From Boswellia sacra (lineage: Eukaryota; Streptophyta; Magnoliopsida; Sapindales; Burseraceae), in assembly GCA_013180625.2 (NCBI GenBank), contig SNVD02000262.1, positions 1-64,000 on the forward strand: a DNA stretch of 64,000 bases. Reading direction: 5' to 3'. This document shows, one piece after another, positions 5,912 to 54,593 of this stretch (position 1 is its first letter; each line of letters opens with the position of its first letter). The notes under the pieces are model-generated. The model was not told the origin of the DNA and made no database searches. It was given only the letters and a program-made list of their open reading frames with translations. The position numbers and the translations under genes are program-made.

Positions 5912-7334
5912 TGATGCGTTCGAAACTAGCAAGTATACTAGTCGCAGAAGTAATAAAGTGATGAGTGAGATATCGTTCCCACGAGGATTGATTCTAATTA
6001 AATTTGTTATTTTTCAGCAACAATAAACTAAATGTGGGGGGTTTTGTTGAATGATTAATTAAACTGAATACGAAGGCAAATAAAGAATAACACAACACAA
6101 TATTAAATGAATTGAAAATTCAATGAGAGACACTTGGTTAAGGGTTCTTTCTCTGCCACAAGATATGAATTTTTGAATTAACATAGAATTGTAATCCAAT
6201 TACAGCATTGAAGTTATCAACCGTAGATAACAACAAGCTCTGTTATCCCAATCTTTCCTTACTTTGGTGTTAAATAAAACAAGCTCTTTATTTAATCTCT
6301 ATCCATTAAACAACCTAGAACAAGCTCTCTGAGTTTAAATCAATGGAAGCATTACGATGAGAAAGATAGGTTGATCTAAGCAATAATCACACAAGTTCGG
6401 ATTATTTAACCTAGGTTGTATTTTCCAATTGCAATCTCTGATCACAATTTTGCTACTAATGATTGGAAATTCATGACAATTACGGATCAAGAGTTCTAAT
6501 CTAGCAATAGACAACAACAGATTATATTCAGTTGGCCATTCCAAATACAATCAGTAAGCAATCATAAGCATTAGATATGGGAAAATACAAGCAACTTCAA
6601 TTAGAGAATTGGATAACAATTTCTTACCCAATCAACTCAAAAAATCCATATCAAGGGCTTTGAAATCACCCTCAACCAATTCAGATTTAGTTACACATAT
6701 TCAATCAGAATAACAAACACAATACAGAGAAATTCCAGAATTGAAAAGGAAAGAAAGAACTTAGCAAATTCTTTGAAAATCTTCTTTGTAGATGAATCTT
6801 CTTGGAATTGTAGTTCCTCCTCTTTCAAAATCTTCTTTCTCCTTCAAGAACTCTAAGGGATGAGAGAAATCCAGAAATGCAGCCTCCTCCCACGTTTTCC
6901 CTCCTCAAGTTATCAAAATAAAACCCTAAAATGTGTTTAAATACTCTGCTACAGTAACCTGCTACAGTGTCCCGTATTATAATGCTACAGTGATTTGTGG
7001 AATTACGTTTCTATACTTCTCACACTGTTTTGATTACAACTTTTGGTACACTGAATGGATTTATAAACCGTAAATTTCTCCAGAAAAAAGACTTCGAGAG
7101 CTTTCCAACGGTATATAACATGTCGTCGGGTTCATTGTATATCAATACAATTAAATCCGAGAAGATCACTGACTAGAAGAGGTGAAAATGAAGGGTTTTA
7201 CTCCATTTTTGTGCAAGTTGCTCCAAAACTCCTACAAACATCAAAACCACACAAAAACATAAAAATACCAAGGAATATAGCAAAGAAACATGGACGAATT
7301 GATATAAAAGTAATACATAAATAGACACCTATCA
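5912..7334 (-). repeat. 5' LTR of element 1
   Basis: About 1423 bp bounded by TG...CA (plus-strand TGATGCG...CCTATCA). It is an inverted copy of the LTR at 17020-18429, with matching termini and matching internal blocks such as the gctacagt repeats near 6950-6990. It should contain the element promoter and polyadenylation signal; I did not pin these down. Short open frames here are chance. Confidence 0.88.
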
Positions 7335-7399
7335 TTGACCTTGCACGACATACTTCCCTCCCATCTTCTTGCAGTTCAATCAAATCTGAATCGGAAGCA

Positions 7400-9006
7400 A
7401 TGGCGATGGAAAACGATCAGACTCTTAAGGAGTTAGCGGCTCCAATTATTGATCAACAACCGCTATGCATAAGCACCAATTCTGAGATAAATTTTGAACT
7501 TAAATCTGGACTGATTCATCTCTTGCCTACATTTCATGGTTTTGCAGGAGATGATCCGAACAAACACCTCAAAGAATTTCATGTGGTATGCTCAAGTATG
7601 AAGCCAACCGGCGTTTTTGAAGAGCAAATTAAATTGAGAGCTTTCCCATTCTCATTAGCAGATTCGACAAAAGATTGGCTATACTATCTACCACCAGGTA
7701 CCATTACCACATGGAATGAGATGAGTAAACTCTTTTTGGAGAAATACTTTCCAGCCTCAAAAGTTACAAATATTAGAAAAGATATTAGTAGCATTCGACA
7801 ACACAATGGAGAATCACTTCACGAATATTGGGAGAGATTTAAAAGGTTATGTGCTAGCTGTCCAAACCATCAAATTAGTGATGGACTCCTAATTCAATAT
7901 TTCTATCAGGGTCTCTTACCAATGGAAAGGAGTATCATTGATGCTGCTAGTGGTGGAGCACTAGTTAATAAAACACCGAACGTTGCAAGACGTTTGATTA
8001 GTGACATGGCAGCGAACTCCCAACAATTCAGCAGTCAATTTGAGCCACAACTACCAAAAAGAGTAAATGAGGTAAGTACTTCAACATTGAACATCAACTT
8101 TCTGAACTTACCTCTCTTGTAAAAAAAATGGCTGTAGGACATATGCAGCAATCTTATGCATGTGGGGTATGTTCTGCCATGGATCATCCAACCGACATGT
8201 GTCCAACTTTGCAAGAAGGAGATACAGAACAAGCCAATGCCATGGGTGGATTTCCAGGACAACCAAGGCAAAGGTATGACCCTTTCTCCAATACTTACAA
8301 TGCTGGATGGAGAGATCACCCTAATTTAAGATATGCGAATCGTCAACCAATTTCCCCAAATGCCATACCAAATCGACCACCAGGTTTCAATCAACCAAGG
8401 GTGCAGCAAACATTTCAAGCACAACCACAACTAGCACCACAACCAGCTCCACAAAATTCAGGTATGTCTCTCCAGGATATTGTTAAAGCACTTGCCACTA
8501 ACACAATGCAATTTTAGCAGGAAACTAGGGCAAGTATCCAAAACCTGGAAAATCAAATGGGACAATTGGCACTAACATGAGCAAATTTGAGAGTCAAAGC
8601 TCAGGAAAATTACCTTCTCAGCCGGTGATCAATCCAAGAGAGAATGCTAGTGTCTGTAACTTTGAGAAGTGGGAAGCAATTAGAGATTCCACCAAGAAAT
8701 CACAAACTGATGAAGGGGAGACACCACTCCCACCATGAATAAAACATCATCTTCTAAGGTTAAACCTAAAACCCATATTCCTTCATATGTTACCCTCCAC
8801 TTTTCCATCAGATTTGCAAAATCAAGGAAGAGGAGGAACAAGAACAAGAAATCTTGGGAAAACTTTTCGCCAAGATCGAGGTAAACATACCATTTTGATG
8901 GTATCAAGCAAGTGCCTCGTTCTGCAAAAATTCTCAAAGGTTATGCACCAACAAGAGGAAGTGAAAGAAATGAGAAAGTAAGTGTGGGGAAAATGTTTCA
9001 GATGTA
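7400..9006 (+). pseudogene. Element 2 gag (frameshifted)
   Basis: The capsid part is open from 7400 to 8122: leader, then TFHGFAGDDPNKHLKEFH, DWLYYLPPGTITTWNE and ESLHEYWERFKRLC, the Athila-type retrotransposon gag domain. The frame shifts near 8100, and the nucleocapsid part (8128-8517) carries the zinc knuckle CGVCSAMDHPTDMC (CCHC). A TAG at about 8515 replaces the CAG found in element 1. Between 8520 and 9006 several further indels break the linker. The ATG at 7400 is the first in frame; element 1 has a homologous leader upstream. Confidence 0.85.
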
Positions 9007-9345
9007 TTGCAAAAAAAAATTCCTCCGAAATGCAAAGATCCAGGTACGTTCACCATTCCATGCACCATTGGTAATACCAAGTTTGAAAGAGCTATGTTAG
9101 ATTTAGGAGCATCTATTAATGTCATGCCATATTCTATTTATGCTTCTTGGAATCTTGGACCCCTTGCGGAAACTGGTATTGTAATTCAACTTGCTGATCG
9201 TTCTAATGCATATCCAAAGGGAGTTGTGGAAGATGTGCTTGTGCAGGTAAATCAATTGGTTTTCCAGCAGACTTCTATGTTCTGGAAATGGAGGATGAGA
9301 CATCTCCCAATCCAACACCGATTCTTTTGGGGAGGCCATTCTTGA
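9007..9345 (+). pseudogene. Element 2 aspartic protease (frameshifted from pol)
   Basis: Retroviral-type aspartic protease that would cut the gag-pol polyprotein. The core reads AMLDLGASINVMPYSIYAS with the catalytic Asp in DLGAS near 9105. The partner motif ILLGRPFL falls in the next frame at about 9320-9345, so an indel near 9260-9290 separates the protease from the long pol frame. In size and motif order it matches the family apart from that break. Confidence 0.8.
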
Positions 9346-12344
9346 AAACTGCCCGAACGAAGATTGATGTTCATGATGGCACTCTCACCATGGAGTTTGA
9401 TGGCGAGGTGATTCGTTTCAATATTTTTAAGGCAATGAGGTACCCTAGTGACTTGCATTCTGTTTTTGCAGTTGATGTTATTGATTCTTTGGCACAACAA
9501 CTTTTTGAGTTAACTCGCAAGGATGCATTGGAAGTAGCCATTAGTGAGCACATTGGGGCAGAAAATTCCAGAGAATCGAGGAAGTTGATACAAGTGTATA
9601 AAGAAGTGGAGGAAGCTGTGGCAAGCTTGGATGAGACTATAGCTATCACCACAAACAGGTATGATGTTTCGTACATTGAATTGCCTTTATCTAATGAGAA
9701 ACTTCTACCTTCCGTGATGAAAGCACCTGCCTTGGAGCTTAAGCCTCTTCCAGATCATTTGAAGCATGTATTCCTAGGTGAGAAAGATACTTTGCCAGTC
9801 ATAATAGCAAAGGGTCTTGCACCATTACAAGAAGAGAAACTCATCCGAGTGCTCCGAGATCACAAAACGGCCATTGGGTGGACAGTCGCTGACATCAAAG
9901 GTATTAGTCCAGCCGTATGCATGCACCGCATCTTGTTAGAAGAGGGATCCAAGCCCACTAGAGAAGCACAGCGGAGGTTGAATCCTCCCATGATGGAAGT
10001 TGTCAAGAAAGAAATCCTGAAATTGTTAGATGTGGGTGTGATTTATCCAATTTCGGACAGCAAGTGGGTGAGTCCAGTCCAAGTTGTTCCGAAGAAATCT
10101 GGTGTTACGGTGGTTAAGAATGACAATAATGAGCTAGTTCCCACTCGTATCCAAACCGGGTGGCGAGTTTGTATTGATTATCGAAAGCTCAATTCTGCAA
10201 CTCGCAAGGATCACTTTCCTTTGCCATTCATTGATCAAATGCTGGAGAGATTAGCAGGTCATTCTCATTATTGTTTTCTTGATGGCTATTCAGGATATAA
10301 TCAGATTGTCATTGCCCCTGAGGATCAAGAGAAAACTACATTCACATGCCCATTCGGTACATTTGCCTATCGACGCATGCCATTCGGTCTTTGCAATGCC
10401 CCTGCCACTTTCCAAAGGTGTATGGTAAGTATTTTCTCTGATTATGTTGAGAACATTATTGAGGTATTTATGGATGACTTTAGTGTTTTTGGTGATTCTT
10501 TTGATAAATGCCTTGACAACCTTACCCTTATACTTCAAAGATGTATAGAAACTAACCTTGTTCTGAATTGGGAGAAATGTCATTTTATGGTAGATCAGGG
10601 TATAGTTTTGGGACATGTTATTTCTGCTAAGGGTATAGAGGTTGATAAATCCAAGATAGATCTTATATGTTCCTTACCACCTCCCACAAGTGTGCGGGAT
10701 ATTCGTTCGTTTCTTGGTCATGCAGGTTTTTATCGTAGATTCATCAAAGATTTCTCGAAGATAGCATTGCCCCTATGCAGATTATTACAGAATGATGTGG
10801 CCTTTGAATTTGATGAGAAATGCAAAGAGGCATTTGAGAAACTGAAGGAACTCTTGACTTCGGCTCCAGTAATCCAATCTCCGAATTGGAATCATCCATT
10901 CGAGATCATGTGCGATGCAAGTGACTACGCTGTGGGTGCCGTTTTGGGTCAACGAATTGGCAAAATTCCACATGCCATTTACTATGCATCTCGGACTTTA
11001 AATGATGCTCAACTTAATTATTCTACCACTGAGAAAGAGCTGCTAGCGGTTATTTTTGCTTTAGAAAAGTTTCGATCTTATTTGATTGGTACTAAAGTAA
11101 CCGTTTATTCTGATCATGCAGCTTTGAGGTACTTGCTCACAAAGAAAGATGCTAAACCAAGGCTTATCAGGTGGATACTCCTTTTACAGGAATTTGACTT
11201 GGAAATCAAAGACAAGAAGGGAAGTGAAAACTTAGTTGCAGACCATCTCAGTCGCATTGTCCATGATAAGAATGCACTGCCATTACAAGAAAGTTTTCCA
11301 GATGAACAATTGTTGTCTCTAAATGTAGTAGCCCCTTGGTATGCAGATATTGTCAACTACTTAGTTACCAAAAAGCTACCACATGACTTGACTCGAGCTC
11401 AAAGAGACAAGATCAAGAACATTGCCAAGTATTACATATGGGATGATCCGTACTTATGGAAGCATTGTTCTGACCAAGTGATAAGAAGGTGCATTTCTGA
11501 ATCTGAATTTAATTCAATTTTAACCTTCTGTCATTCTTATGCATGTGGAGGTCATTTCGGACCAAAAAGAACAGCCCTTAAAGTTCTTGATTGTGGATTC
11601 TACTGGCCATCATTGTTCAAAGATGCATATCTGTTCTGCAAAGCTTGTGACCGTTGTCAAAGGACAGGTAATTTAAGTGCCAAAAATCAAATGCCACAAA
11701 CCCCTATACTTATTGTCGAGATTTTTGATGTGTGGGGTATTGATTTCATGGGTCCTTTTCCTTCATCTTTTGGTAATATTTACATTATACTTGCTGTGGA
11801 TTATGTTTCTAAATGGGTGGAAGCAAAAGCTACGAGAACTAATGATTCTAAAGTTGTTGTAGATTTTGTGAAATCTAACATTTTTGCGAGATTTGGAACA
11901 CCAAGAGCCATGATAAGCGATAGAGGGACACACTTCTGCAACAGATCATTTGAAGCCTTGCTCAAAAAATACAACATCACTCACAAGGTGTCTACTGCCT
12001 ATCATCCACAAACAAGTGGTCAAGTTGAAGTTTTAAATCGAGAAGTCAAGTCCATTCTCGAGAAGACAGTGAATCCGAACAGAAAAGATTGGAGCCTACG
12101 ACTTAATGATGCACTTTGGGCATACCGAACTGCTTACAAGACACCTATTGGTATGTCTCCGTACAGGTTAGTCTATGGTAAGCCATGTCACCTTCCGTTA
12201 GAGCTCGAACACAAAGCATGGTGGGCAGTAAAGCTTTGTAACATGGAGATGGATGCTGCTGGAGAACAAAGGAAGCTTCAACTGCAAGAATTGGAAGAAC
12301 TTAGAAATGATGCCATGATATTCCAGCATTTTATACAAGGATAG
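9288..12344 (+). CDS. Element 2 pol: RT, RNase H, integrase (1018-codon frame)
   Basis: Open frame with all main pol domains. Protease tail ILLGRPFL is near residue 10; RT spans about 200-470 with [25 protein letters not shown] and the catalytic FMDD box near residue 393. RNase H has [13 protein letters not shown] near 542 and the typical TEKELLAV. The integrase zinc finger has its His residues near 748-755 and CKACDRC near 785. The catalytic core shows IDFMGPF (818), DRGTHF (879) and a downstream Glu near 915. The frame ends early: a long A-rich run at 12350-12393 disrupts the integrase C-terminus. Upstream it is out of frame with the protease. Enzymatic domains look intact, but the polyprotein cannot be made as a whole from this copy. 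Confidence 0.93.
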
Positions 12345-12680: not shown

Positions 12681-13183
12681 ACAGATAACGTCAGGCTGAG
12701 GACGTTAAACTAAGCGCTTAGTGGGAGGCAACCCAATGTTTTTGAAATATAATAAAAAGAGACAAAGAAAAGAAGGTAGTATTGATCAATTTTTGTGTTT
12801 CGAGGAGATTCCTCTCATGGGCTATTATAATTGATCAGGTTTTATCTCTCTTTGCCATTTGTCTCATTTGCTTTGTTGTGTGTTTTTGACTTTCATTTGC
12901 TCTTGTGTTTTTATTTCTTTTATGTGGAATACATCTAAAGTTTTCTTCCTTGTATCTTGGTTCTATGTTCTTGTTTTAGATATTGATGTGTGTGTGGCGG
13001 GGTGTACATGATCAGTACTATGTCTATGCGATATTTCACACCATTCGACACATTGATGGCGAATAGGAAGGCAGCATTCAAACGGGAGTTGACGCCATTG
13101 TTCGAAGGTTTGAAACGTGCATATCTGGGAGAAGAACAAACTCAATCGCATTATCGGTAATATCTCTCCTTTTCTTCTCTTCA
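12681..13183 (+). other. Post-pol spacer, element 2
   Basis: Non-coding spacer between pol and the first cargo ORF. It contains the Athila-type block GGAGGCAACCCAATG near 12727 and T-rich sequence. No splice signal or promoter could be assigned with confidence; how the cargo is expressed (subgenomic promoter, splicing or read-through) is not evident. Confidence 0.6.
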
Positions 13184-13702
13184 ATGGATGCTGATATGTT
13201 TCTATCGAACCTTCATAAATATTTCCCTTCACTTCCTCAAAATGCTGTGTTTAAAATTTATAAAGTACGGATGACTAGACTTTTGGCGTTGATGCTCCTA
13301 AATGTGCCTGCTGATATCCGATGGCTTATCGAAGCCAAAGTGAGATTGTCCGGTGAACCGGACATTAATCTCGCAAAATACATGCCTGGTCTAGGAAAGA
13401 GCTACTACGCCAAGAGGCTAAGAGCGAAAAGGTTACAAGTATGTTATAAATGTGCTAGATGGAATTGTAACCAGACTTGTCGTTCATTAGGTTTTGCGTC
13501 CAGGAATAGAGAAGATAACCTTTCATTTATTAAGAATGGTTTGAGTAATGAGTCGCTGGATAATGTTTTGTTAACTCTCGAGTCACATTCGTGTGGACTT
13601 GTTCAGCGTGAATTGCTTAATCTATGGACACAATTTCGTGATGAATTGCAGTGTTATAGTCTAGGGAATCTGACTAAAAACGACCCTGTTTGCAGTTTAT
13701 AA
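13184..13702 (+). CDS. Cargo ORF X: small basic Cys-containing protein, possibly related to viral cysteine-rich nucleic-acid-binding proteins
   Basis: 172 codons, ATG to stop, uninterrupted. Residues 1-60 are leucine-rich and probably helical (NVPADIRWLIEAKV). About residues 70-90 hold a basic patch, GLGKSYYAKRLRAKRL, followed at once by CYKCARWNCNQTC (Cys spacing 2, 4, 3). The C-terminal half has further Cys and ends SLGNLTKNDPVCSL. It is not gag, pol or a recognisable env. The order hydrophobic helix, Gly/Ser-Tyr-Ala basic stretch, Cys cluster resembles in my judgement the cysteine-rich nucleic-acid-binding proteins of carla-type plant RNA viruses, several of which affect silencing or cell proliferation; the Cys spacing after the first pair differs. 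A diverged copy sits in element 3 at 33619-34109 in the same relative position. The role is unproven. Confidence 0.7.
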   Translation: MDADMFLSNLHKYFPSLPQNAVFKIYKVRMTRLLALMLLNVPADIRWLIEAKVRLSGEPDINLAKYMPGLGKSYYAKRLRAKRLQVCYKCARWNCNQTCRSLGFASRNREDNLSFIKNGLSNESLDNVLLTLESHSCGLVQRELLNLWTQFRDELQCYSLGNLTKNDPVCSL

Positions 13703-13962
13703 GAAAACTGGATGGGAAGCAAATCCCCGACTCATAGAAGGCGTTTCAGCCGTTACTGGACGTAAAACCAAAGGAAGATGTGAGTCACAATCACAACTAC
13801 TTGTATATTTGAATGTGTGTTGTTGTCGTAGAATTTTTTTTCTTGTTTCGTTTGATCTGATTTTCAATGTTGTTTTTGTGTTCTTGTTGTTTGTTGATTT
13901 TGTTTGTTTTAATTTCAAGTTTTCTTTTTGACAAACCATATGACTACCCTATGGCATAAGTA
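13703..13962 (+). other. Spacer between cargo ORF X and hairpin array
   Basis: T-rich non-coding sequence. The segment around 13705-13770 (ending near CGTAAAACC) has a related segment in element 3 near 33525-33600 on the minus strand, so part of this spacer also belongs to the shared cargo module. No ORF is supported. Confidence 0.5.
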
Positions 13963-14160
13963 CACGTGGGAGATAAGTGTGGAGGTTTTCTCAACCTCCA
14001 CCGAAAGTGTATCTCCATTTTTAATGCTGCACGTGGGAGACAAGTGTGGGGTTTTGTCAACCCCCGCCGAAAGTGTATCTCCATTTTCCATGCTTCACGT
14101 GGGAGACAAGTGTGTAGGTTTTGTCAAACCTCGCCGAAAGCATATCTCATTTTTTCAAAT
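13963..14160 (+). repeat. Three tandem 66-67-bp hairpin-forming repeats upstream of LOG-like gene
   Basis: Repeats begin at 13963, 14030 and 14096, each opening CACGTGGGAGA. Each can fold: an inner stem GGAGGTT/AACCTCC in copy 1, GGGGTT/AACCCC in copy 2 and AGGTTT/AAACCT in copy 3, each with a short loop. An outer pairing is GGAGATA/TATCTCC in copy 1, with GGAGA/TCTCC in copy 2. Stem sequences differ but pairing is kept, which is what selection on RNA structure would give. The array ends about 190 bases before the LOG-like ATG. A shorter relative of the unit's second half appears near 14180-14215. Confidence 0.75.
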
Positions 14161-14352
14161 TTTGGGGCTATAAATCTGCATCGAGCAACTCCCACCGAAA
14201 TTATGTCCCCATGTGTCAAATTTGAGAGTTTTACATGTGTATATATCCATGCTGCATATTTTGAAATGTCATTTTATAACCTGTCTTGCACTTGAATCAC
14301 ATAATACCTAACGCACATCATTATCTTGCACAAGTTTAGAGCACTTTTAGAA

Positions 14353-15005
14353 ATGGAGAACACACCAATTCGGCGATTCCAAAATATATGCGTATTTTGT
14401 GGATCGCAATTTGGTAAAGATGGAGAGTTTACAACAACAGCTCTTGATCTTGGTAGGACATTAGCTGCGAGGGGTATTCATTTGATTTATGGAGGGGGTA
14501 GTCTTGGGTTAATGGGATGTGTGCCGACAGCTGCATCCCTGGGAGGGAGCAAAGTTCTCGGCATTATCCCTAAACCATTAGCTGTACGAGATATCGTAGG
14601 CAACACCATGGGGAAAGAGTTACAGGTTTCTAGTATGCATGAGCGTATTGCACATATGATCATTAAATCTGATGCATTTATAGCTTTGCCCGGTGGTTAT
14701 GGTACATTAGAGGAGATATTTCAAATCACCTCTTGGGCACAGCTAAACATCCATCGGAAACCCATTGGTTTGTTAAATGTCAATAATTTTTTTTGATGGT
14801 TTGTTGTCTTTTCTTGATCAAGCAGTAGAAAAAAAACTTCATCTCACAGTCAGCGAGGCAAATCCTGGTTACAGCTTCAACTGCAGGGGAGTTAATTGAC
14901 AAATTACAAGAATTCGTCTATTCGCCTAATTCAACAATGGCTCGGATAGATTGGTTTGGAGAAGGCAATAAGAGGCGTAAACTGGATTTAACGCTCCATC
15001 TATAA
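14353..15005 (+). pseudogene. LOG-like: Cargo gene: LOG-like cytokinin riboside 5'-monophosphate phosphoribohydrolase (two 1-base frameshifts)
   Basis: LOG enzymes release active free-base cytokinins from their nucleotides in one step. The frame from ATG 14353 shows ICVFCGSQFGKDGEF near the N-terminus, IYGGGSLGLMG, the Arg of MHERIAHM, and the signature PGGYGTLEE with the catalytic Glu, so the Rossmann-like LOG/lysine-decarboxylase fold seems complete. The Lys usually next to the catalytic Arg in plant LOGs is Ile here and in the element 3 copy. Two breaks occur, each in an 8-base homopolymer: T run near 14788-14795 and A run near 14829-14836. Downstream sequence continues the family pattern (DQAVEKNFIS, ARQILV) to a stop at 15003-15005. 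The breaks could be real decay or homopolymer sequencing errors. The gene follows the hairpin array and precedes the 3' untranslated tract. Confidence 0.9.
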
Positions 15006-17019
15006 TCTCTAGCTGCTGGTTTGTTTCATTTTCGTTTGCTTTCTCTTTATTGTGTTTATTTGAGTTTTTTTTTTATGTCATTTCTTTTGAGTCTTTTTCA
15101 GGTTATTTCTTTCGAGTCTTTTTCAGGTTATTTCTTTCGTCCCAGGTAATATTTTCTAATCTCGGTTTTTAGACTGGTGGCTTAAAAAGTTCAAGTTCTC
15201 TTGAAACGCATTCTGGATCTCTTCAATCCATAATGGCTAAATAAGGAGGCTAACTTCTAAACTTTTTAGACCCATTCTAACTAACTTGTTTTTGTTTGCT
15301 GACTTATTGAACTTTGTTATTTTATGAGTGAGTTTAGTTTTGCATAATTTAGAGTTGTTATGTATTTTTATCTTTATCAGTTTCGATTCAAAAAAAACAA
15401 TTGTGGAAAAACCTGAGAATGGCCAACTATAGGGTTTTCTTAACTCTTGAAACGCGTTCTCTCTAAATAAATCTGTAGTTTATTTATTTCGTGTTGTTTG
15501 AAGTGTCTTGTTTCTTATTTTGTTCTTTCATAATAAAGGTATATAGGCTGGAAACCTTAAGTCTGCGGCTACTGGTCCTAAGGATTGTTGAAATATACAA
15601 TCTTGACTCAGGTGTAACAACGCCACGTACCTCTTTTCTTGCATTTTGTGGGTCGATGATAAGATAATGATTGAATTAAGAATAACTCTTGGAAAATGAT
15701 AAATGATGCATGGATCTGTGTGCTTGAAATGTTTATTGGTTTTCGCTTTGCTTTTGATTCCTTGCGCAACATTGAGCACTGAGCTATTATCACTGAGTTA
15801 TTTGTTCACTTAGAGAAAGTTTATGTAATTTAAATGTTTCTTCAGATTTCAATGAATTCTAGAACTTGTTTGATGGTCACTCAAGGCGAAATCCTAGGCT
15901 GTGCAACATTGGGGAAATGATTTAGGCCTTCTTTGCACCGTTTGAGCCTTAATACCAACCTTGACAGAAATTGATCCCTAGTTACCCCTTTGAGCCTCTG
16001 TAAGCCTTTTTCTTTGTTAACTCACTAAAGATTTCCTAACCTCAAATGAATTTGTTCCAAACAGTTTATCCCTTACCTATGAGCATGTAGATCATTCACA
16101 ATTAAATTTTGAGCTATGTTCTGGTTTTGGGAAGTTAGAGGAGGTTGGGATGTGTCATGAGCAATGCAAGTGAGTTCTATTATGTTTGTGAACAAAAAAA
16201 AAGAAAAAAAAGAAAAAAAAGCCAATCTGTTGTTATCATCCACGTACTTACACATTGAGGACAATGTGTTGTTTAAGTGTGGGGAGGGGAAGTGTAATAA
16301 AAAAAAGAAAAAAAGAAAAAAAAAGAAAAAAAAAGAACAAAAGAAGAAGAATAAGAGATCTATACCCTTAAGTGTTCTTAAAAAGAATGAAACAACAAAG
16401 TGTGGGGGTGTAGTTTTCTTTTGTTTTCTGCAAAAAAAAAAAAAAAGATTGAGTGTTCTAAATAAGTTTGGGGGAGTAACCTGGTGAATTGAAATGAAGT
16501 TGTGTTATAGGGTTGAGCTCTATATAGTCTTGAATGATTTATGTGTTTGTGGGTGATTTGAGCCAAATTATTATCCTTTATCATACCTTCACCCAAGCCA
16601 AACGTTACAAGCTTAATAAAGTCCTACTTGATCCTTGGTGTTGTGCATGTCTACATTAGTGGAGAGTGACTTGAAAAGCAGGCCTATGGAGTTCATTTAT
16701 ACACACATCTTCAATATTAAATATGATTCATTTTTATGCATAAACTCATCCGGGTTACAAGTGATTAGGTGAGAATGGCTCTACACACACACACTTGAGG
16801 AATTGAAATGAAGCGAAACTAATCTTTGAGATAAAATTCTTGATCAAGTGCATTATTTTGAAGTTTTCCTTGGGTTATAATTAAGTACAATCTTTGAGGC
16901 CTATTTGCAAGATGAAGCATTTGTGTGTTTTAATTTTTTGTTGATTCTGTTTCGGTTTAGTTTTATTTCACATTGTCATAGTTGCTCGAGGACTAGCAAA
17001 GTCTAAGTGTGGGGGAATT
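15006..17019 (+). other. 3' untranslated region and polypurine tract, element 2
   Basis: No gene is supported over 2 kb. It contains a short tandem repeat around TTTCTTTCGAGTCTTTTTCAGG (about 15080-15140), A-rich runs at 16193-16220, 16300-16345 and 16431-16447, and recurring Athila-type motifs AGTGTGGGG/GTTTGGGGGAG (about 16277, 16399, 16469). The final AGTGTGGGGGAATT just before 17020 is the likely polypurine tract priming plus-strand DNA synthesis. Lysine-rich ORFs here are artefacts of the A runs. Confidence 0.75.
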
Positions 17020-18429
17020 TGATAAGTGTCTATTTATATATCATTTTCATATCAATTCGTCCATGTTTCTTTGCTATATTCCTTGGTATTTTTATGTTTT
17101 TGTGTGGTTTTGATGTTTGTAGGAGTTTTGGAGCAACTTGCACAAAAATGGAGTAAAACCCTTCATTTTCACCTCTGCTAGTCAACCATCTTCTCGGATT
17201 TAATTGTATTGATATACAATGAACCCGATGACATATTATATACCGTTGGAAAGCTCTCGAAGTCTATTTTCTGGAGAAATTTACGGTTTATAAATCCATT
17301 CAGTGTACCAAAAGTTGTAATCAAAACAGTGTGAGAAGTATAGAAATGTAATTCCACAAATCACTGTAGCATGTATAATACGGGACACTGTAGCAGGTTA
17401 CTGTAGCAGAGTATTTAAACACATTTTAGGGTTTTATTTTCATAACTTGAAGAGGGGAGAACGTGGAGGAGGCTGCATCTTTGGATTTCTCTCATCTCTT
17501 GGAGTTCTTGAAGGAGATTGAAGGCTTGGAAAGAGGAAGAACTACAAATCCTAAGAGATTTCATCAAATTTGCTAAGTTTTCCCTTTCCCTTCATTTTCT
17601 GGAATGTCTCCATATTGTATTATATTTGTATTCTGTCTGAATATGTGTAACTAAATCTGAATTGATTGAGGGTGATTTCAAAGCCCTTGATATGGTTTTT
17701 GTGAATTGATTGTGCAAGGAATTGTTATCCAATTCTCTAATTGAAGTTGCTTGTATTTTCCCATGTTTAATGCTTATGATTGCTTGCTGGATTGTATTTG
17801 GGTGGCCAACTGAATATAATCTGGATATTGTCTATTGCTAGACTAGAAATCTTGATCCGTAATTGTCTTGAATTTCTAATCATTAGTAGCAAAATTGTGA
17901 TCAGAGATTGCAATTGGAGAATATAACCTAAGTTAAATAATCCGAGCTTGTGTGTTTATTGCTTAGATCAACCTGTCTTTCTTTTCATAATGCATCCATT
18001 GAATTAAATTTAGAGAGCTTGTTCTAGGTTGTTTAATGGATAGAGATTAAATAAAGAGCCTTGTTTTATTTAACAACAAAGTAAGGAAAGATTGGGATAA
18101 CAGAGCTTGTTGTTATCTACGGTTGATAACTTTAATGCTGTAATTGGATGACAATTCTACGATTAATTCGCAAATCCATATCTTGTGGTAGAGAAGGATC
18201 CCTTAACCAGATTTCTCTCATTGATTTTTTACTCAAATTAACTTTCTGTTTTGTTATTCTTTATTTGCATTAATATTTCATCTAGTTAATCAATCAACAA
18301 AACCCCCCGTTTATTCTGTTTTCGCTTTCGAATAACAAATTCAATTAGAATCAATCCTCGTGGGAACGATATCTACTTATCACTTTATTAATTGTGCGAC
18401 TAGTATACTTGCTAGTTTCGAACGCATCA
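17020..18429 (+). repeat. 3' LTR of element 2
   Basis: About 1410 bp, TGATAAG...CGCATCA, an inverted match to 5912-7334 over its whole length. It is preceded by the polypurine tract. The base composition and the gctacagt repeats near 17390-17410 match the other LTR. The flank from 18430 (GACAT) would hold the target duplication, but the partner flank is not in the window. Confidence 0.88.
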
Positions 18430-25175: not shown

Positions 25176-25361
25176 GCCCCTATTTGACTGTCGCCCGATG
25201 GTTGGTCAATAGCAACTCGGTCGTATGACCATCGACCGGCGGTTAGGGGCTTTATAGAGCCCTCCTTCATTTCTGTCTTTATTTGCACGTAACTTCTCTG
25301 TTTTTTCATCCGATTGACTTCCAATTTTTTCGTATATGTTCATCTCAACTTTTTCTTCCTA

Positions 25362-29971: not shown

Positions 29972-31244
29972 TGACACATCCAAAAAAGGATTATCGACCG
30001 TAAGACCGGGGTCGATCCACGAGGAAGGGGATTTAGCGCTACAAACTATAAGGTAAGCAAATATGATATGAATAATTTAAATGAATAACAAGATGATATT
30101 AACAAATAAAAGCAAGATGATAGGTGATATAACTGATCATTCAATTGTAATCAAGAATAAGAGGTGGTTAAACCATCCATGGTAAGGAACAATTAAGTAA
30201 TAAATAATAATACTTAAAATACACAAATAAGAAAAATTGACACAATAATAATGAAAGCTAAGGTTAGGGGATCCGCCCTTGATATATCAAATAAGGATAA
30301 ACTACCCAATTATAGCTCAGCTGGAATCCACATATTAAGGAGGTTCCAATAAGAAGGTACGTCATTTAAGCCCACTTTAGTTATATGAATGAATTATATT
30401 TGTTTCACTACCAATATTTATACCATTTCTTACAAATGGGTTCAAGCATCTAATGTGTCAATCACCATATGTCTACAACAAATCATAGTTTGTAACTTTA
30501 CTTGTGTCGATAAGGAAGAACTATGCGACATCTAGAAAGGATCCAAGCATTTGATCTGCTAAGGATTGTCTACAATGGATCAAGACCTCCACTTTATAAG
30601 TGGTGTCAAGATTGATTAGAGAAATAAATATAAATCATATAAAATAAATATCAAAACATTATGATTATAAAGTACATGTCAAGGGTTAGAAAATCCTTAT
30701 TTTCATATCAAGGGTTTCACCCTTTCACCTTAGTAAGAGAGAATTAGCAAGACATTATAAAAGAAAGAAAACAAATTGCAAGAAAAAGAAGATTTATTAA
30801 TAACATAAAAACACAAGAGAGAAAAACACAATAACAAGAGATCCTAGCCAAGGCCATGATGGCTTAATGGGTCACAAGGCACCTCTATTTATAGATACAT
30901 TCAAGGGCAAAGTTGTCAAATTACAAAGGGACAATTGAAAAATATCTTGTTTACAATTTGGATCATCATGTGCACCAAATTTGACCTCCGATTTCGGCAA
31001 CGAATTATTTAGAATTTTGATCATATGTCTTCATGGAACTTGTAGATATTTCTCTTAGCTTTCTAGAACATCTTGACTACAATGCCCATTTTACCAAACC
31101 TATAATAAAGACCAAAATTAAGGTGAAGTTAATTCAAAAAATGCAAAGACTACAAATATGCTTAAGTTGAGGAATTTAAAGGCACTATTAGTGCAAAATA
31201 ATGGATTAAGCTCTTATTAATTATACACATTTAAGTTTTCATCA
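29972..31244 (-). repeat. 3' LTR of element 3
   Basis: About 1273 bp, plus-strand TGACACATCC...TTTTCATCA. It matches 57776-59226 and, inverted, 38315-39848. Relative to those it lacks roughly 240 bp (the segment present at about 58850-59060), so the copy has an internal deletion. Next to it at 31247-31256 the minus strand reads GGTTGGGGGG, the likely polypurine tract. Confidence 0.87.
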
Positions 31245-32503
31245 CACCCCCCAACCAGCTTATTGCTAGTCCCTAGCAATTAAGGCGTTATTATTTAGTA
31301 GTGATTTATAGAATTTTACATCCAAGGTGGTCATTATTGCACTCTCCTTGATTCTATCCAAATAAACAAACTCTCAAACTTTTTTTTTTTGAAACTCATG
31401 TACCCTTCAGTCAAGATATTAACAAACCTTTCTTTTTATGCTTAGTCGACACATGACTATGAGACTTATTAGAAAGAAGCCATATCGGTTCTAATATTTG
31501 TTAAGGTTACCATTCTTAGGCAGGGGACATTCATTCATCATTATTTTTATCTTTATATATATATATATATATATATTATTATTATTATTATTTTTGAACA
31601 ATACATCTTTAACCCATGTAACGAGCCTTAGGCTAATGACTCCCAGACCAGTTGGCCTTAAGGCATTAGGTGTTAAGACACCCCTACAAGCTTAATTACT
31701 CGGGTTGCCGATGCTTTAATTTTGTTTAAAAACTTGTGAATAGTGCAATGTTCAATCCCTTTAAGCTTTCTTCTTAATCCATGTACCGAGCTTTGGGCCA
31801 ATAGCTCCCAAACGAGTTGGTCTTAGGGTATTAGGTGTTGAGGCACCCCTCGGGCTTAATTGCTCGAATTAAGGAGGCTACGAGAACAAACTTATCCATA
31901 ATTGTTTTTTTTTCCTTCACTTTTTTTCTCCTTTTTTTTTTTTACTTTCCCTTTCCTTTTGTTGTTATCCTAAACAAAATAAAAAAACTCAAATATTGCA
32001 ACATTTCATTTTGCAACCCACAATCATGCATCAAGGTGTGTGTGTGTGTGAAGAAAGGTTCGTGAATACTTGTTTAATGAGTACATGAGCAAACAATTTA
32101 TTAAATGACAAAGCTGTGAGAGTTCATAGATTTGAATAATTTAAAGTGAAGTGAATTAAGACAACCTCTTTATAAAATTAAAAAATCAAAACTAAATAAT
32201 ATCAAGTTAGCTAAAATGAGTCTTCAAAAGTACAAAATCAAAACAAAATGACAAAATGGTTAGAATGGGTTTCAAGAGCTCAAAATGGCCCTCTTTACTC
32301 TACCATTCCTCACCTAGAATGATCTCAAGAGGATTTGAACTCCTTACACCGCACTCTGAATCGAATTACTAACTCGTTTTTTTTTGCAAAAAGAGAATTT
32401 AAGACACACTTATGTCTACTATCCTTCCCCCCCAACCAAATGAAACATTGTCCTCAATGTTTAAATGTAGAGAGATAATGTATAAGAGACGTCACTTAAA
32501 GCT
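31245..32503 (-). other. 3' untranslated region of element 3
   Basis: No gene supported. Two diverged direct copies of a roughly 90-base unit lie at 31611-31705 and 31779-31866 (shared phrases GGCATTAGGTGTTAAGACACCCC-type and TTAATTACTCG). There is an AT/TTA simple repeat at 31553-31592 and TG repeat at 32037-32049. The guanine-rich minus-strand motif near 32430 parallels the Athila-type tracts of element 2. Confidence 0.6.
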
Positions 32504-33224
32504 TTAATTATTCAAAAGAGACGACCTGAAAGACATGTAAAATAAAATGCTACAAATAAAATAAAAGACAAGAAAAATTACAAACAGAGATTCAGATCCA
32601 ATTTGCACTTTTTTTTGCCCCCCTGACCAATTAATTTGAATTATAGCTGGGTCAAGTTCATACTCGACTGCTTGTAATTTATCAAGTAATTCACTAGTAG
32701 TAGTGGCAGAAACAAGGATTTGTCGCACCGAATAAAGGATAAAATTCTGTTCTAAAGCTGCATCAACAAAACGTATCAAAGGATCAAAGAAATTTTTAAC
32801 ATTCAATAAACCTATAGGTTTTTTATGGAGATTCAGTTGGGCCCAAGTGGCAATTTGAAAAATTCTTTCGAGAGTACCAAAGCCACCTGGTAAAGCAATA
32901 AAGGCATCTGAATTAATAAGCATATATGCTATGCGTTCATGCGTGAAGGAGACCTGTAACTCCTTCCCAACCGTTTTTCCAATGATGCTTTCTATAGTCA
33001 AAGCTTTAGGAATAACACCTAAAACTTGACTGCCTCCTAAGTGCAGCTGTTGACACACAACCCATTAGCCCAAGGCTACCTCCCCTTTAAACCACATGAA
33101 TCTTTCTTTCAGCTAATAGCCTACCAAGATAATTTGCTACAACTACAAACTCTTCACTTTTTCCAGGTCGAGATCCACAAAATACACATATCTTTTGGAT
33201 TTGACATTTTGAAGTTTCTTCCAT
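32504..33224 (-). pseudogene. LOG-like: LOG-like cargo gene of element 3 (decayed)
   Basis: The minus-strand ATG is at 33224; the N-terminal part reads KICVFCGSRPGKSEEF, then a stop replaces Tyr in the usual IYGGGS motif near 33105, and a one-base loss near 33035 shifts frame. The rest is open from 33058 to 32504: VLGVIPKAL, THERIAYM, then PGGFGTLERIF. The final Glu of the LOG signature is Arg here, so catalysis would be lost even without the frame breaks. Over about 85 aligned residues it is roughly three-quarters identical to the element 2 copy. A hydrophobic tail of about 30 residues beyond the usual LOG end is probably run-on. Confidence 0.88.
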
Positions 33225-33618
33225 GTCTATTCAACTCTCTAACTATATGTGTGAAGTGAAGAACAAGAGATGTCATATTTATGGAGTGCAAAATTATATT
33301 CTAATGATGACATCTATATAGGTAGCTCGGCTATTTGTTGAAAAAGTTTGACAATAAAGAATAGAAATTCAGAAAAAAGACAAAAATAAGACATCATAAA
33401 TGCATGAGTTAACTGAAAGATAGAGATATTAATTAAAAAATGATAGCCATAAGGCATTAAAATTAAAAAATGATAGCACACATGCATATGTACAAGTAGT
33501 TGTGACTATGGCTCATATCTTCTTCTCGTTTTACATCCAGAAATGGGTTAAACACCTTCTATGAGTTGGGGATATGCTTCCCATCCAGTTTTCTTATAAA
33601 CTGGCAAACAGGATTGCT
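33225..33618 (-). other. Spacer between cargo ORF X and LOG, element 3
   Basis: Non-coding. It contains an inverted repeat AGATGTCAT (33268-33276) / ATGACATCT (33307-33315) about 50 bases upstream of the LOG-like ATG, a possible counterpart of the hairpin array in element 2, though sequence-unrelated. The part at about 33525-33600 resembles 13705-13770. Confidence 0.5.
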
Positions 33619-34109
33619 TTAAGTCAGATTCCCAAGACTATAACGTTCCTGCTCGTCTTGAAACTGTGTCCATAATTTAAAAATTTCACTCTGCACAATT
33701 CCACAAGAATGCATCTCAAGAGTCAATTGGATATTATTATCCAAAGACTCCTTACTCAGTCCATTCTTGATGAATTGTAGCTTATCCTCTCGATTATTAG
33801 ACAAATATCGCAAGGAGCGACAACACTGGTTACAAGTCCATCTTGCATATTTGTGACAAACTTGTAACCTTTTAGCTCTTTGCTTTTTGGCATAAAAGCT
33901 TTTTCCCAAACCTGCATGTGGGAAACAAGATCATCTGAAAACTCATAAGAAAATTGAACCTTAGCTTCAAGTAACCATCTTAAATCAGCAGGAATACCTT
34001 TACGCATCAACATCCTTAGTCTTTCTGTGCGAGCTTTGTAAATTTTAAGTAAATCATTTTGAGGAAGAGAGGAAAAATGTTTGTGCAGATTTGAGAGAAT
34101 GGTATCCAT
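33619..34109 (-). pseudogene. Cargo ORF X of element 3 (one frameshift)
   Basis: Counterpart of 13184-13702. From the minus-strand ATG at 34109: ILSNLHKHFSSLPQND, then GIPADLRWLLEAKV, matching the helix-rich N-terminus. A one-base loss at about 33915-33925 shifts to a second frame (33909 to 33619) with GKSFYAKKQRAKRLQV and CHKYARWTCNQCC; the second Cys of the first pair is Tyr. The C-terminal half (NREDKLQFIKNGLS, SLGNLT) keeps close similarity. Conservation of the basic patch and most Cys in a family with diverged pol suggests past selection. Confidence 0.8.
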
Positions 34110-34192: not shown

Positions 34193-35330
34193 TCACGAAA
34201 TACCGTATCTGCCATTTGACCAGGAAAAATCAATCCTTAAAAAGGATCGATTAGAGAATGGTTTTAACCGTTGTCCGTTAACTTTAAAAATATTACAATT
34301 CTTTGGGTTCTCAATTTCAACTGCGCTATGAGAGAAAACATTTTTAACAATGAAAGGCCCAGTCCAATGAGATCGAAGTTTACCACGAAATAAATGCAAT
34401 CTTGAATCATAGAAAATAACTTTTTGTGAAGGTTCAAAAGATTTTCTAACAATGGATTTGTCATTAAAGACCTTCATTTTTTCTTTATAGATTTTAGAAT
34501 TTTCATAAGCCTCATTCCTTATTTCTTCAAGTTCACTCAGTTGAAGTTTACGTAACTTACAAGTATCATCCAAATTTGTGTTAAATGTTTTAATGGCCTA
34601 ATAAGCATTATGCTCTATTTTCATAGGCAAGTGACAAGGTTTCCATAAACTAATCTATAAGAAGACATTCCCAATGATGTTTTGAAAGTATATTGGTAAG
34701 CCCAAAGTGCATCATTAAGTTTTAAAGACCAATCTTTACGGTTTAGGTTAACCGTCTTTTCTAAGACATGTTTTATCTCTCTATTAGCTAATTCAACTTG
34801 TCCATTTGTTTACGGGTGATAAGGTGTAGAAACTTTATGGGTTATTCCGTATTTCTTCATTAGAGTTTCAAATGGTTTGTTGCAAAATTGTGTACCCCAA
34901 TCACTAATAATGGCTCAAGGAATTCCAAATCTATACAAGATATTCTCCTTTAAGAATATAATAACTATTTTGTGATCATTGTTTCGACATGGAATTGCCT
35001 CCACCCCTCTTGAAATATAGTCTACTGCAACAAGAATGTACACAAAACCAAATAATGGTGGAAAAGATCCCATAAAATCAATACCTCAACAGTCAAAGGT
35101 TTTAACAATATGAATGAGATTCAAAGGCATCATGTTTCGTTTTGAAATCCTAATTTTTGACAATTTTTGTAAGTTTTGCAAAATGCATATGCATCTTTAA
35201 ATAAGGTGGGCCAATAAAATCTACATTGCAAGATTTTAGCAAACTATTTTCTTAGATGAAAAGTGTCCTCCATATGCTTCGGATTGACAAAAATTAATGA
35301 CACTGCTTACCTCATTGTCGGGTATTCATC
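34193..35330 (-). pseudogene. Element 3 integrase (decayed)
   Basis: The C-terminal part is at 34193-34573 (ELEEIRNEAYENSKIYKEKM, LRSHWTGPF). The core and zinc-finger regions at about 34600-35330 are readable only in pieces because of stops and indels. Homologous along its length to element 2's integrase. Confidence 0.82.
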
Positions 35331-36989
35331 TTCTAACTATTTGTTCCAGACAATATTTGAATAGATATGGGTCGTCCCAATAAAAATTTTTCGCCTCAGT
35401 CAAAAACTTCCTTTTGTCTTGAGCATTCCAATGAGGTGGCATTTCTCCTGTTGCAAGAAAATTTATAATGTTAGCAAACCAAGGTATCGCAGCAGTGGAG
35501 AATAAAAATTCATCAGGAAAAGAGTCATTGATAGGTGAAATTTCAATTAATGTCTCTATTGTTAATCTTGAAAGGCGATCTGTAGCGACATTTTTGGCTC
35601 TTTTCTTATCCTTTATTGTGATGTTGAATTCTTGGAGCAATAAGATCCACTGAATCAATGTAGGTTTTGCATCTTGTTTAGACATTAAATATCTCACTGC
35701 TGTATGATCAGTGTAAACAATTGTTGGAGAACCAATTAAATAAGATTAAAATTTATCCAATGCAAATACTACTGCAAGTAGTTCTTTTTCAGTTGTTGTG
35801 TAATTCATTTGTGCATCATTTAAAGTCCTACTTGTATAGTATATCACATAAGGTTTACCGTCTTTTCTTTGTCCTAAGATAGCACCAACGGCATAATCAC
35901 TTGTATCACCCATCAATTCAAAAGGCAAGGACCAATTAGGAGATTGCATAATTGGAGCAGTTCTTAAAAGTCCAATTAACTTATCAAAGGCATTTTGGCA
36001 ATCTTGAGTCCATTAAAAAGAAGTGTCTTTTATTAAGAGGTTACAAAGAGGTTTAGATATGGCACTAAAATTTCTTATGAACCTCCTATAAAATCCGGCA
36101 TGCCCTAAGAATGAACAGACCTCTTTGACTGTTTTTGGTGGAGGCAAATGAGAAATTAATTCTACTTTTGCTTTATCCACTTCAATTCCCTTGGAAGACA
36201 CCACATGACCTAAGACAATTTCTAAAGTAACCATATAATGACATTTTTCCAAATTCAAGAAAAGACCTTTCTCTTCACACCTTTTTAGGACTTTTTCTAA
36301 GTTTTCAAGACAATTATCAAAAGAGTTTCCAAAAACAGTTAAATCATCCATGAAAACTTCTGAACAATGCTCAATCATGTCATTGAAAATGCTTAACATG
36401 CATCTTTGAAAAGTAGCTAGAGGATTACAAAGTCCAAAAGGCATTCTTCTAAATGCAAAAGTGTCAAAGGGGCACGTGAATGTGGTCTTTTCTTGGTCTT
36501 CAAGTGCAACAGGAATTTGATAATATCCTGAGTATCCATCGAAAAAGCAGTAGTTGGAGTGCCCTGCTACTTTTTCTAAAATTTGGTCAAGGAATGGTAA
36601 GGGAAAATGGTCTTTTCTGATGACAGCATTTAATTTTCTATAATCAATGCACATCCTCCAACTAGATAAGACTCGAGTTGGTAATGCCAGATTTCTTAGG
36701 TACTATTTGTATAGGGCTTACCCACTTACTATCAGAAATAGGGTAGATAATCCCACATCAAGTAGTTTGTGAACTTTAGCCCTAATGACTCTTTCATGTG
36801 GGGATTTAATCTCCTTTGAGGTTGTTGGGATGTTTTGGCATTTTCTTCTAAATGTATTCTATGTGTACAAATCGAAGGGTTAATGCCTTTTATGTCATTT
36901 AAAGTCCAACTGATTGCATTTTTATGCCTTTTAAGCACGTGTATCAACTTACCTTGTTGCTCGCTTGTGAGGGATGAAGAAATTACCAC
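35331..36989 (-). pseudogene. Element 3 reverse transcriptase and RNase H (decayed)
   Basis: RT at 36013-36654 and 36732-36989: [30 protein letters not shown], catalytic FMDDLTVFG near 36345 and [11 protein letters not shown]. RNase H at 35326-35949: DTSDYAVGAILG and TTEKELLAV. Frame breaks at about 35745, 35990-36012 and 36655-36770. The RT is close to 70% identical to element 2's by eye, a family-level difference. Confidence 0.87.
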
Positions 36990-54236: not shown

Positions 54237-54593
54237 CATGAGAAGTCTATTCTGCTGCCACTTTTGCCTGCAAGCCTACTGGCTCTAGAAGAGCCACATC
54301 CTTTCAGATGGTTAACTCATAATGCATTATTTTCTATGTTTTCGCTTCTCTGTCGGGACAAACTGGTGTTACCATACATGGCCGTCTATGCTCTATTTAC
54401 TCTTCTTTACTATGCACCTGGTGGAAGATCACATGGGATGAAAACCAAGCCTTCTGCCTCTTTTGCATCGATTATGATAGGCTTTCTTTATTTGTGCTCA
54501 TTTGTTCTTCATATTGTTTACTTAACCATGCGTCCTCCTGCAAAGTTCCCTTACCTCTTTGAAGCAGTGATAATGCTTCTTTGCTTCTTTTAG

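What the first reader, a model, noticed from the sequence alone, without database searches (positions are those of the whole stretch)
12681..17019. Athila-like retrotransposon carrying a two-gene cargo: a Cys-containing basic protein and a LOG cytokinin-activating enzyme
Between pol and the 3' LTR, where Athila elements usually have an env-like ORF or nothing, element 2 has ORF X (13184-13702) and a LOG-like gene (14353-15005). Neither is a retrotransposon gene. LOG makes active cytokinin in meristems. A retroelement able to raise cytokinin locally, with a possible silencing suppressor, could favour replication in dividing cells that lead to the germ line. I know of no described family with this pair. 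The function is inference; presence and order of the genes are seen.
Basis: partly seen in the sequence, partly recalled or inferred. Interest (0 to 1): 0.93.

Follow-up and report, generated by a model that had tools for sequence, protein, structure and literature searches.

The report
Retrotransposon with viral and cytokinin genes
A jumping gene in a plant genome carries two extra genes, one related to a plant-virus protein and one related to a hormone-activating enzyme, and a second, different element nearby has the same pair, which would likely help such elements escape silencing and keep host cells dividing.

Summary
Between pol and the 3' LTR, element 2 (E2) has ORF X (13184-13702) and an intronless LOG gene (14353-15005, frame-broken). 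A second, diverged element in the window (E3, minus strand), with a different LTR, has the same pair in the same order; only these two genes align between their 3' regions. Between E2 and E3 the pair shows purifying selection (dN/dS 0.157; shifted frames 0.85 and 1.17). ORF X is not an anonymous basic protein: it passes Pfam's cut-off for Viral_NABP, the flexivirus cysteine-rich protein family. X+LOG gene models occur in Citrus, Gossypium and Diplodiscus. Element-type LOGs form one clade apart from the host LOGs sampled, and 68 of 81 long ones end in a basic run plus LxLxL (EAR-type), against 0 of 120 host LOGs. LOG domains in Gypsy elements of Citrus and poplar are already in print, so that half is not new; I found no report of the viral-type partner or the tail. 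Both copies here are frame-broken. Function (silencing suppression, local cytokinin, corepressor binding) is inference.

The parts
7334..8517 (+). E2 gag (5' end most likely interrupted by insertion of E1; E2's 5' LTR is not in the window)
   Evidence: ORFs 7325-8122 and 8071-8517; Retrotrans_gag 3e-21; E1 LTR abuts at 7334
9207..12344 (+). E2 pol: RT, one RNase H, integrase
13184..13702 (+). ORF X: flexivirus-type cysteine-rich nucleic-acid-binding protein, basic run then C-x2-C-x4-C-x3-C; last codons of the family in another frame here
   Evidence: PF05515 5e-9, 106 relatives
13963..14115 (+). tandem units of about 66 bp with CACGTG (G-box) at 13963, 14030 and 14096, upstream of LOG; no CACGTG between X and LOG in E3
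   Evidence: (D9, two copies)
14353..15005 (+). intronless LOG gene, frame-broken after about codon 147; PGGYGTLEE and MHER motifs present
14970..15005 (+). LOG C-terminal tail KRRKLDLTLHL and stop (basic run + LxLxL, EAR-type)
17020..18429 (+). E2 3' LTR (TG...CA), purine-rich tract just before it
34508..36998 (-). E3 pol, about 56% identical to E2 pol, decayed
33562..34109 (-). E3 ORF X homologue, frame-broken
   Evidence: its first piece alone matches no Pfam family
32578..33224 (-). E3 LOG homologue, one stop and frame breaks; catalytic Glu reads Arg; tail KKCKLDLNLCL at 32578-32616 in a shifted frame
30000..31250 (-). E3 3' LTR (ends approximate); not matched by E2's LTR
5912..7334 (-). 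E1 5' LTR, 89% identical to E2's LTR; E1 PBS core at 5905

Best explanation
Between pol and the 3' LTR this Athila-like retrotransposon carries two extra genes, a relative of flexivirus cysteine-rich proteins (X) and an intronless LOG gene, and the same pair with a low dN/dS in a second, different element suggests that a lineage of such elements has kept them as a working module that would likely suppress RNA silencing and raise active cytokinin in the cell. Shown: presence, order, recurrence, one clade of element-type LOGs apart from the host LOGs sampled, low dN/dS, and a C-terminal basic run + LxLxL tail on most long element-type LOGs. Inferred: (1) X, with its basic run and zinc finger, acts in the nucleus or on small RNAs as its viral relatives do, blunting silencing of the element; (2) in intact family members LOG releases active cytokinin from its nucleotide, holding cells in or near division, where reverse-transcribed copies can reach the germ line; (3) the tail takes LOG into the nucleus and binds TOPLESS-type corepressors. 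Step-by-step odds: selected module 0.95; active LOG in intact members 0.75; X a silencing suppressor or nuclear factor 0.5; tail binds TOPLESS 0.35. The copies in this window are broken.
For: Recurrence: E2 and E3 share X and LOG, and nothing else between pol and LTR aligns; E2's LTR finds only E1's in the window; pol 56%. Selection: 325 codon pairs, dN/dS 0.157 in frame, 0.845 and 1.166 in shifted phases. Spread: 106 X relatives; 8 of 17 sequences read are gene models running from X into LOG; shared contig lengths. LOG: one clade, 99/94; PGGxGTxxE in 101 of 120. Tail: 68 of 81 against 0 of 120 hosts; 30 of 35 representatives under 80% identity, shuffle mean 0.5, maximum 5. Viral CRPs reported as suppressors, CVB p12 as a transcription factor inducing hyperplasia (PMC12172455, introduction read).
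Against: No expression, enzyme or silencing data. Both copies are broken, and E3's catalytic Glu reads Arg. Motif counts are lower than in hosts: PGGxGTxxE 101 of 120 against 109 of 120, YGGG 108 against 120, my loose pattern for the MHER-type Arg 85 against 119. The first 60 LOG codons of E2/E3 show little selection on their own (pS 0.381, pN 0.245, like the shifted phases). Carla_C4 is just below cut-off for E2's X (20 against 20.9), and E3's first X piece matches no family. Foldseek matches are individually weak and the models poor (pLDDT 61 and 60). An LxLxL motif alone is not enough: in PMC7446885 none of ten other LxLxL effectors bound TPL. Host controls are the best 120 relatives of one LOG3 (LOG1/3-type), plus one LOG8 in the tree. 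Cargo pS (0.656) is below pol pS (0.858), so the module may have moved between elements by recombination. The tail is missing in 13 of 81 long element-type LOGs, among them members of a basal clade of seven tree rows, some of them named Xanthoceras.
Confidence: 0.6

Rival explanations
1. X is an RNA chaperone or packaging factor for the element itself (an accessory nucleocapsid), and LOG is a metabolic passenger or acts only through nucleotide turnover; neither manipulates the host.
For: X has a zinc finger and basic run, which would suit RNA binding in particles.
Against: The finger spacing C-x2-C-x4-C-x3-C (40 of 49) is not the CCHC knuckle of gag (recalled), and the two families matched by the 27 members scanned are both viral CRP families. 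It leaves the conserved LOG active site and tail without a reason.
Confidence: 0.2
2. The tail on LOG is not a TOPLESS ligand but a structural strand or a localisation or stability signal; LOG works as a plain cytokinin enzyme.
For: LxLxL alone does not predict TPL binding (PMC7446885).
Against: Leu at -5, -3 and -1 in all 30 tailed representatives with variable residues between, after a K/R run (the 30 were chosen for holding LxLxL in the last 12, its exact position was not imposed), fits the LxLxL definition of the EAR motif (PMC6283911 and PMC9956375, abstract starts in the listing).
Confidence: 0.35
3. The pair is a one-off chance insertion of host sequence in this copy.
For: Host gene pieces are known inside plant LTR elements (PMC7264820, part 1 of 3 read).
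Against: Same pair in E3, in gene models of other plants, shared contig lengths, low dN/dS.
Confidence: 0.02
4. E2 and E3 share the module through later recombination between elements, so its presence in both is one capture plus exchange rather than long joint descent with pol.
For: Cargo pS (0.656 pooled) is below pol pS (0.858); cargo blocks are X 49 and 71%, LOG 61, 74 and 43% identical, pol 56%. E2 and E3 LOG pieces pair in the tree (100/51, not a starred branch).
Against: The spacer between X and LOG does not align between E2 and E3, unlike a recent block transfer; both LOG pieces sit on long end branches (0.34 and 0.37).
Confidence: 0.3

Closest known systems
Gypsy elements with a LOG (YgdH) domain in Citrus and Populus (PMC9289625, passages and section 12 read; Steinbauerova et al. 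2011, abstract recalled, not held)
   Same: Gypsy element with a LOG-type extra gene; same plant groups as some of my hits.
   Different: In the passages read, no mention of a viral CRP-type partner, of the C-terminal tail, or of selection on the pair.
Flexivirus cysteine-rich proteins (NABP/CRP; carla-, viti-, allexi-, mandariviruses)
   Same: Pfam family; basic run and Cys finger; several reported as silencing suppressors (PMC12172455, abstract, introduction, passages).
   Different: Viral CRPs sit in RNA virus genomes; this one is in a retrotransposon and the family runs to about 182 residues with conserved stretches outside the finger.
Orchid Ty3/Gypsy elements with an AlkB-type m6A demethylase (PMC9289625)
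   Same: Gypsy elements that gained an RNA-related accessory domain; AlkB domains also occur in plant RNA viruses (recalled; a viral AlkB paper is in its reference list).
   Different: Other domain, other plant family, a single gene.
HaRxL21, downy mildew effector with C-terminal EAR motif (PMC7446885, abstract and section 11 read)
   Same: A parasite-encoded plant-cell protein with an LxLxL motif near its C-terminus.
   Different: There TPL binding is shown; here only the motif is seen, and the carrier is an enzyme gene in a retrotransposon.
Retand elements with antisense TRP28 ORFs (PMC11963269, abstract and passages)
   Same: Long pol-3'LTR region with conserved extra ORFs and tandem repeats.
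   Different: Antisense, Tat lineage, unrelated proteins.

Membership tests
Athila lineage (Ty3/gypsy, non-chromovirus) | RT-RNase H-INT order with no additional RNase H (aRH marks Tat; PMC6317226, passages) | tested here: met
   E2 pol: RT 316-471, one RNase H region (562-663), INT 765-934; only about 100 residues between RH and INT
Athila lineage (Ty3/gypsy, non-chromovirus) | PBS of the TGGCGCCGTTG type (tRNA-Asp, recalled) | tested here: inconclusive
   seen in E1 (5905) and E3 (41001); E2's own PBS is not in the window
Athila lineage (Ty3/gypsy, non-chromovirus) | place in a reference RT tree | not tested
   no reference RT set at hand
Flexivirus CRP / Viral_NABP (PF05515) | score above the curated Pfam cut-off | tested here: met
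   E2's X 36.9 bits, cut-off 23; 25 of 27 members match at E<=0.01, their own scores against the cut-off not listed
Flexivirus CRP / Viral_NABP (PF05515) | NLS-like basic run and Cys zinc finger | tested here: met
   basic run in 45 of 49, C-x2-C-x4-C-x3-C in 40 of 49 full-length relatives
Carlavirus NABP (PF01623 Carla_C4) | score above the curated Pfam cut-off | tested here: not met
   E2's X 20 bits, cut-off 20.9; best member in the family scan 5.8e-8
Flexivirus CRP / Viral_NABP (PF05515) | suppresses RNA silencing | not testable with these tools
   needs a patch assay
LOG (cytokinin riboside 5'-monophosphate phosphoribohydrolase) | LOG fold family | tested here: met
   PF03641 1.3e-27; TIGR00730 141.9 bits, cut-off 96.35
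LOG (cytokinin riboside 5'-monophosphate phosphoribohydrolase) | NCBIfam equivalog NF058542 cut-off (300 bits) | tested here: not met
   95.3 bits for the 147-aa open piece; the piece is partial, and host plant LOGs were not scored for comparison
LOG (cytokinin riboside 5'-monophosphate phosphoribohydrolase) | active-site motif PGGxGTxxE and Arg of MHER | tested here: met
   E2 PGGYGTLEE, MHER; PGGxGTxxE in 101 of 120 element-type and 109 of 120 host LOGs, loose Arg pattern 85 and 119 of 120; E3 fails (PGGFGTLER)
EAR-motif corepressor ligands | LxLxL near a terminus | tested here: met
   E2 and E3 tails; 68 of 81 relatives of 212 or more residues
EAR-motif corepressor ligands | binds TOPLESS | not testable with these tools
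   motif alone is not sufficient (PMC7446885)

The most novel reading that the evidence does not exclude
A widespread eudicot retrotransposon lineage carries a virus-style host-manipulation kit: a silencing suppressor homologous to that of plant RNA viruses, plus a nuclear, corepressor-binding cytokinin enzyme made by adding an EAR tail to a captured host LOG. It would act as an endogenous growth-hormone parasite, and may share or even have supplied the accessory gene of flexiviruses.
Probability: 0.3. Interest if true: 0.92.

Novelty: new variant of a known kind. Interest (0 to 1): 0.75.

Why it matters
Extra genes in plant retrotransposons mostly have no assigned function. Here both partners have relatives of known activity, so the question what such genes do for the element becomes a bench question. 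If right, a transposon lineage uses cytokinin and a viral-type suppressor, gene exchange links RNA viruses and retrotransposons, and some annotated host LOG genes (three poplar rows named LOGL10) are transposon genes that should be taken out of hormone gene families.

Tried and rejected
Chance insertion: rejected by E3. ORF X as gag nucleocapsid or env-like protein: the three families returned for it at E<=1 are Viral_NABP, Carla_C4 and a phage family below its cut-off, and the finger spacing differs. ORF at 13960-14295 as a third gene: no Pfam match near its cut-off; it covers the tandem repeat. Viral-contig scan for X relatives: 38 pattern matches, none confirmed. Structure of X: two AlphaFold runs of low confidence, so Foldseek matches are used only as a ranking hint. 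Search of the window's own assembly: not completed. Papers on a viral CRP in retrotransposons: none in the held library by 'retrotransposon + carlavirus + nucleic acid binding protein' (0 papers) or Pfam names and accessions (2 papers on glyoxalases); 'Athila + silencing suppressor' gave 7, none on this by title and abstract start. For the tail only one search bears on it (20 of 118 papers listed). Steinbauerova 2011 is not held; I write its abstract from recall. Three CRP papers cited in PMC12172455 are not held and are known to me here only through it. The 1389-base shared contig length joins a jgi and an ena record and may be chance. The last LOG block (53 codons) and pol are saturated at synonymous sites and gave no ratio; that block was left out of the pooled count.
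Full report
What is there. The window is plant DNA (an ALG6/ALG8-type gene piece at 54228-54593) with several Ty3/gypsy elements. E1 (minus strand, from the left edge to 7334) and E2 (plus strand) are related (LTRs 89% identical; pol pS 0.27). E1's 5' LTR (5912-7334) abuts E2's gag, so E1 most likely inserted into E2, and E2's 5' LTR lies left of the window. E2 runs through gag, pol (9207-12344; RT, one RNase H, integrase), ORF X (13184-13702), LOG (14353-15005) and a 1410-bp LTR (17020-18429). The finding's coordinates are right.

Second copy of the pair. E3 lies on the minus strand, from a PBS core at 41001 to an LTR at about 31250-30000, with a same-family LTR of opposite orientation in its gag region (38318-39789). 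After its pol come X (34109-33562) and LOG (33224 to 32578), both broken. E2 and E3 are far apart: E2's LTR finds only E1's in the window by blastn, and pol is 56% identical over 736 residues. A blastn of the pol-to-LTR stretch of E2 against that of E3 gives two blocks only, 13200-13819 (73.5%) and 14378-14916 (70.9%), that is X with about 120 bases after it, and LOG.

Selection. Comparing in-frame blocks of E2 and E3 (no gene mended or joined), X gives dN/dS 0.139 and the N-terminal 145 codons of LOG 0.169. Pooled, 325 codon pairs give 0.157 (pS 0.656, pN 0.209; bootstrap range of pN/pS 0.25-0.40); the same blocks read one or two bases out of phase give 0.845 and 1.166. The signal is uneven: in the LOG block of 85 codons the differences by codon position are 20, 7 and 47, but in the first 60 LOG codons they are 18, 13 and 20, hardly different from the shifted phases. 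Pol and the last LOG block (53 codons) are saturated at synonymous sites and give no ratio. For comparison, gag between E2 and E3 gives 0.36, and pol and gag between E1 and E2, which include decay after insertion, 0.59 and 0.57.

What ORF X is. Pfam places E2's X in Viral_NABP (PF05515) at 36.9 bits against a cut-off of 23; Carla_C4 (PF01623) is just under its cut-off, 20 against 20.9; the first piece of E3's X alone matches nothing. Of 27 aligned members, 25 match each family at E<=0.01. Search of 5.8 billion proteins gave 106 relatives among 142 candidates; the 15 rows that name an organism are all plants (Populus, Xanthoceras, Citrus, Gossypium, Orobanche, Diplodiscus). The typical protein is about 182 residues; among 49 of full length, 40 have C-x2-C-x4-C-x3-C and 45 a basic run before it. 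Two AlphaFold models are poor (pLDDT 61 and 60). Foldseek against viral models gives no match at E<=0.001 with either. By published accounts viral CRPs are silencing suppressors and pathogenicity factors with a nuclear signal and finger, and chrysanthemum virus B p12 acts as a transcription factor that induces hyperplasia (PMC12172455; abstract, introduction and passages). The direction of transfer between virus and retrotransposon is open.

What the LOG is. It is intronless (homology runs through the 653 bases with frame breaks but no inserted intron), nearest in the PDB to Arabidopsis At2g37210. The best 120 of 7955 relatives (a capped list) include 31 rows from Reevesia pubescens by my count, plus Populus, Xanthoceras, Diplodiscus, Pterospermum and Parasponia; three of the five Populus rows are annotated 'LOGL10'. 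I take most as element genes, by inference: X and LOG clusters share the lengths of their longest contigs in five cases (8723, 4511, 2737, 2128, 1389; 40 X and 33 LOG contigs of 1380 bases or more) where jittered lengths give 0.32 on average and never five in 20000 trials; four of the five also share the source. Eight of the 17 X relatives that I read are gene models running from X into LOG, in Citrus, Gossypium and Diplodiscus. A tree of 97 rows (60 of the element-type LOGs, the E2 and E3 pieces, 32 of 120 host LOG1/3-type, one LOG8, two bacterial) puts all 62 element-type rows on one side of a branch, 99/94 (bootstrap not fully settled). So one capture is the simplest reading, with LOG2/5/7-type hosts not sampled. 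Active-site motifs are mostly kept but less strictly than in hosts: PGGxGTxxE 101 of 120 against 109 of 120, YGGG 108 against 120, a loose pattern for the Arg 85 against 119.

The tail. Element-type LOGs end in a K/R run followed by LDLxLxL. In the last 12 residues LxLxL is present in 68 of the 81 with 212 or more residues (68 of all 120; the other 39 are shorter) and in 0 of 120 host LOGs; 6 hosts have it elsewhere. Among 35 representatives under 80% identity, 30 have it, against a shuffle mean of 0.5 and maximum of 5; all 30 have Leu at -5, -3 and -1. It is missing in 13 of the 81, among them members of a basal clade of seven tree rows, some of them named Xanthoceras, most of which keep the basic run. 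E2 ends KRRKLDLTLHL and E3, in a shifted frame, KKCKLDLNLCL. LxLxL is one of the two definitions of the EAR repression motif (PMC6283911, PMC9956375; abstract starts in the listing). A downy mildew effector uses a C-terminal EAR motif to bind TOPLESS (PMC7446885, abstract), but the same paper found that ten other LxLxL effectors did not bind (section 11). So the tail is a strong lead, not a proof.

State of these copies. E2's LOG breaks after about codon 147 and its X ends in another frame than the family. E3's LOG has a stop and frame breaks, and at the Glu of PGGxGTxxE it reads Arg; that Glu is the residue at which the printed stretches of chains 5zbj and 5zbk differ (that 5zbk is a made mutant is my inference). 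Neither copy could work as it stands.

How it most likely works. I commit to a host-manipulation module: X blunts silencing of the element's RNA or acts in the nucleus; LOG makes active cytokinin where the element is transcribed and so favours dividing cells; the tail would add nuclear, corepressor-linked action. The first step rests on homology, the second on an enzyme family of known activity, the third on a motif. Rivals are a packaging role for X, a plain enzyme role for LOG, and exchange of the module between elements.

What is known and what is new. LOG-type (YgdH) domains in Gypsy elements of Citrus and Populus are in print (PMC9289625, section 12, citing Steinbauerova 2011; I recall that paper's abstract as naming two Athila-like elements with LOGL4 similarity). 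I found nothing on the viral-type partner, the conserved pair or the tail in the held library (judged from listings apart from the papers named here); most subscription papers are not in it. Hence a new variant of a known kind.

Noticed in passing
13738-13803 (E2) and 33493-33558 (E3, minus): Just past the family's X stop, in the family's X frame, both elements keep a peptide-like stretch (KAFQPLLDVKPKEDVSHNHNYL / KVFNPFLDVKREEDMSHSHNYL); a Gossypium gene model (P0082) has KAFKPFLDIKPEEDVSYNNNYY. Readthrough, splice signal or RNA element: unexplained.
   Followed up: partly
13963-14115: Tandem units of about 66 bp with CACGTG G-boxes at 13963, 14030 and 14096, about 260-390 bp upstream of LOG in E2; no CACGTG between X and LOG in E3.
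   Followed up: partly
38318-39789, 57776-59226: Two more LTRs of E3's family: one in E3's gag region in opposite orientation, one further right.
   Followed up: no
5912-7334: E1 LTR abuts E2 gag head to head, so E1 most likely inserted into E2.
   Followed up: partly
32504-33064: E3 LOG reads PGGFGTLER: Arg at the catalytic Glu position of the LOG motif.
   Followed up: yes
P0138, P0158, P0160: Populus genes annotated as LOGL10 fall in the element-type LOG clade and carry the EAR-type tail; likely transposon genes counted as host LOG genes.
   Followed up: partly
60376-61839, 62648-63085, 28294-28680: Further minus-strand ORFs that read by eye like pieces of other gypsy-type elements; not scanned.
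   Followed up: no
20083-20501, 25010-25339: Long GA/CT-rich low-complexity tracts that make spurious ORFs.
   Followed up: no
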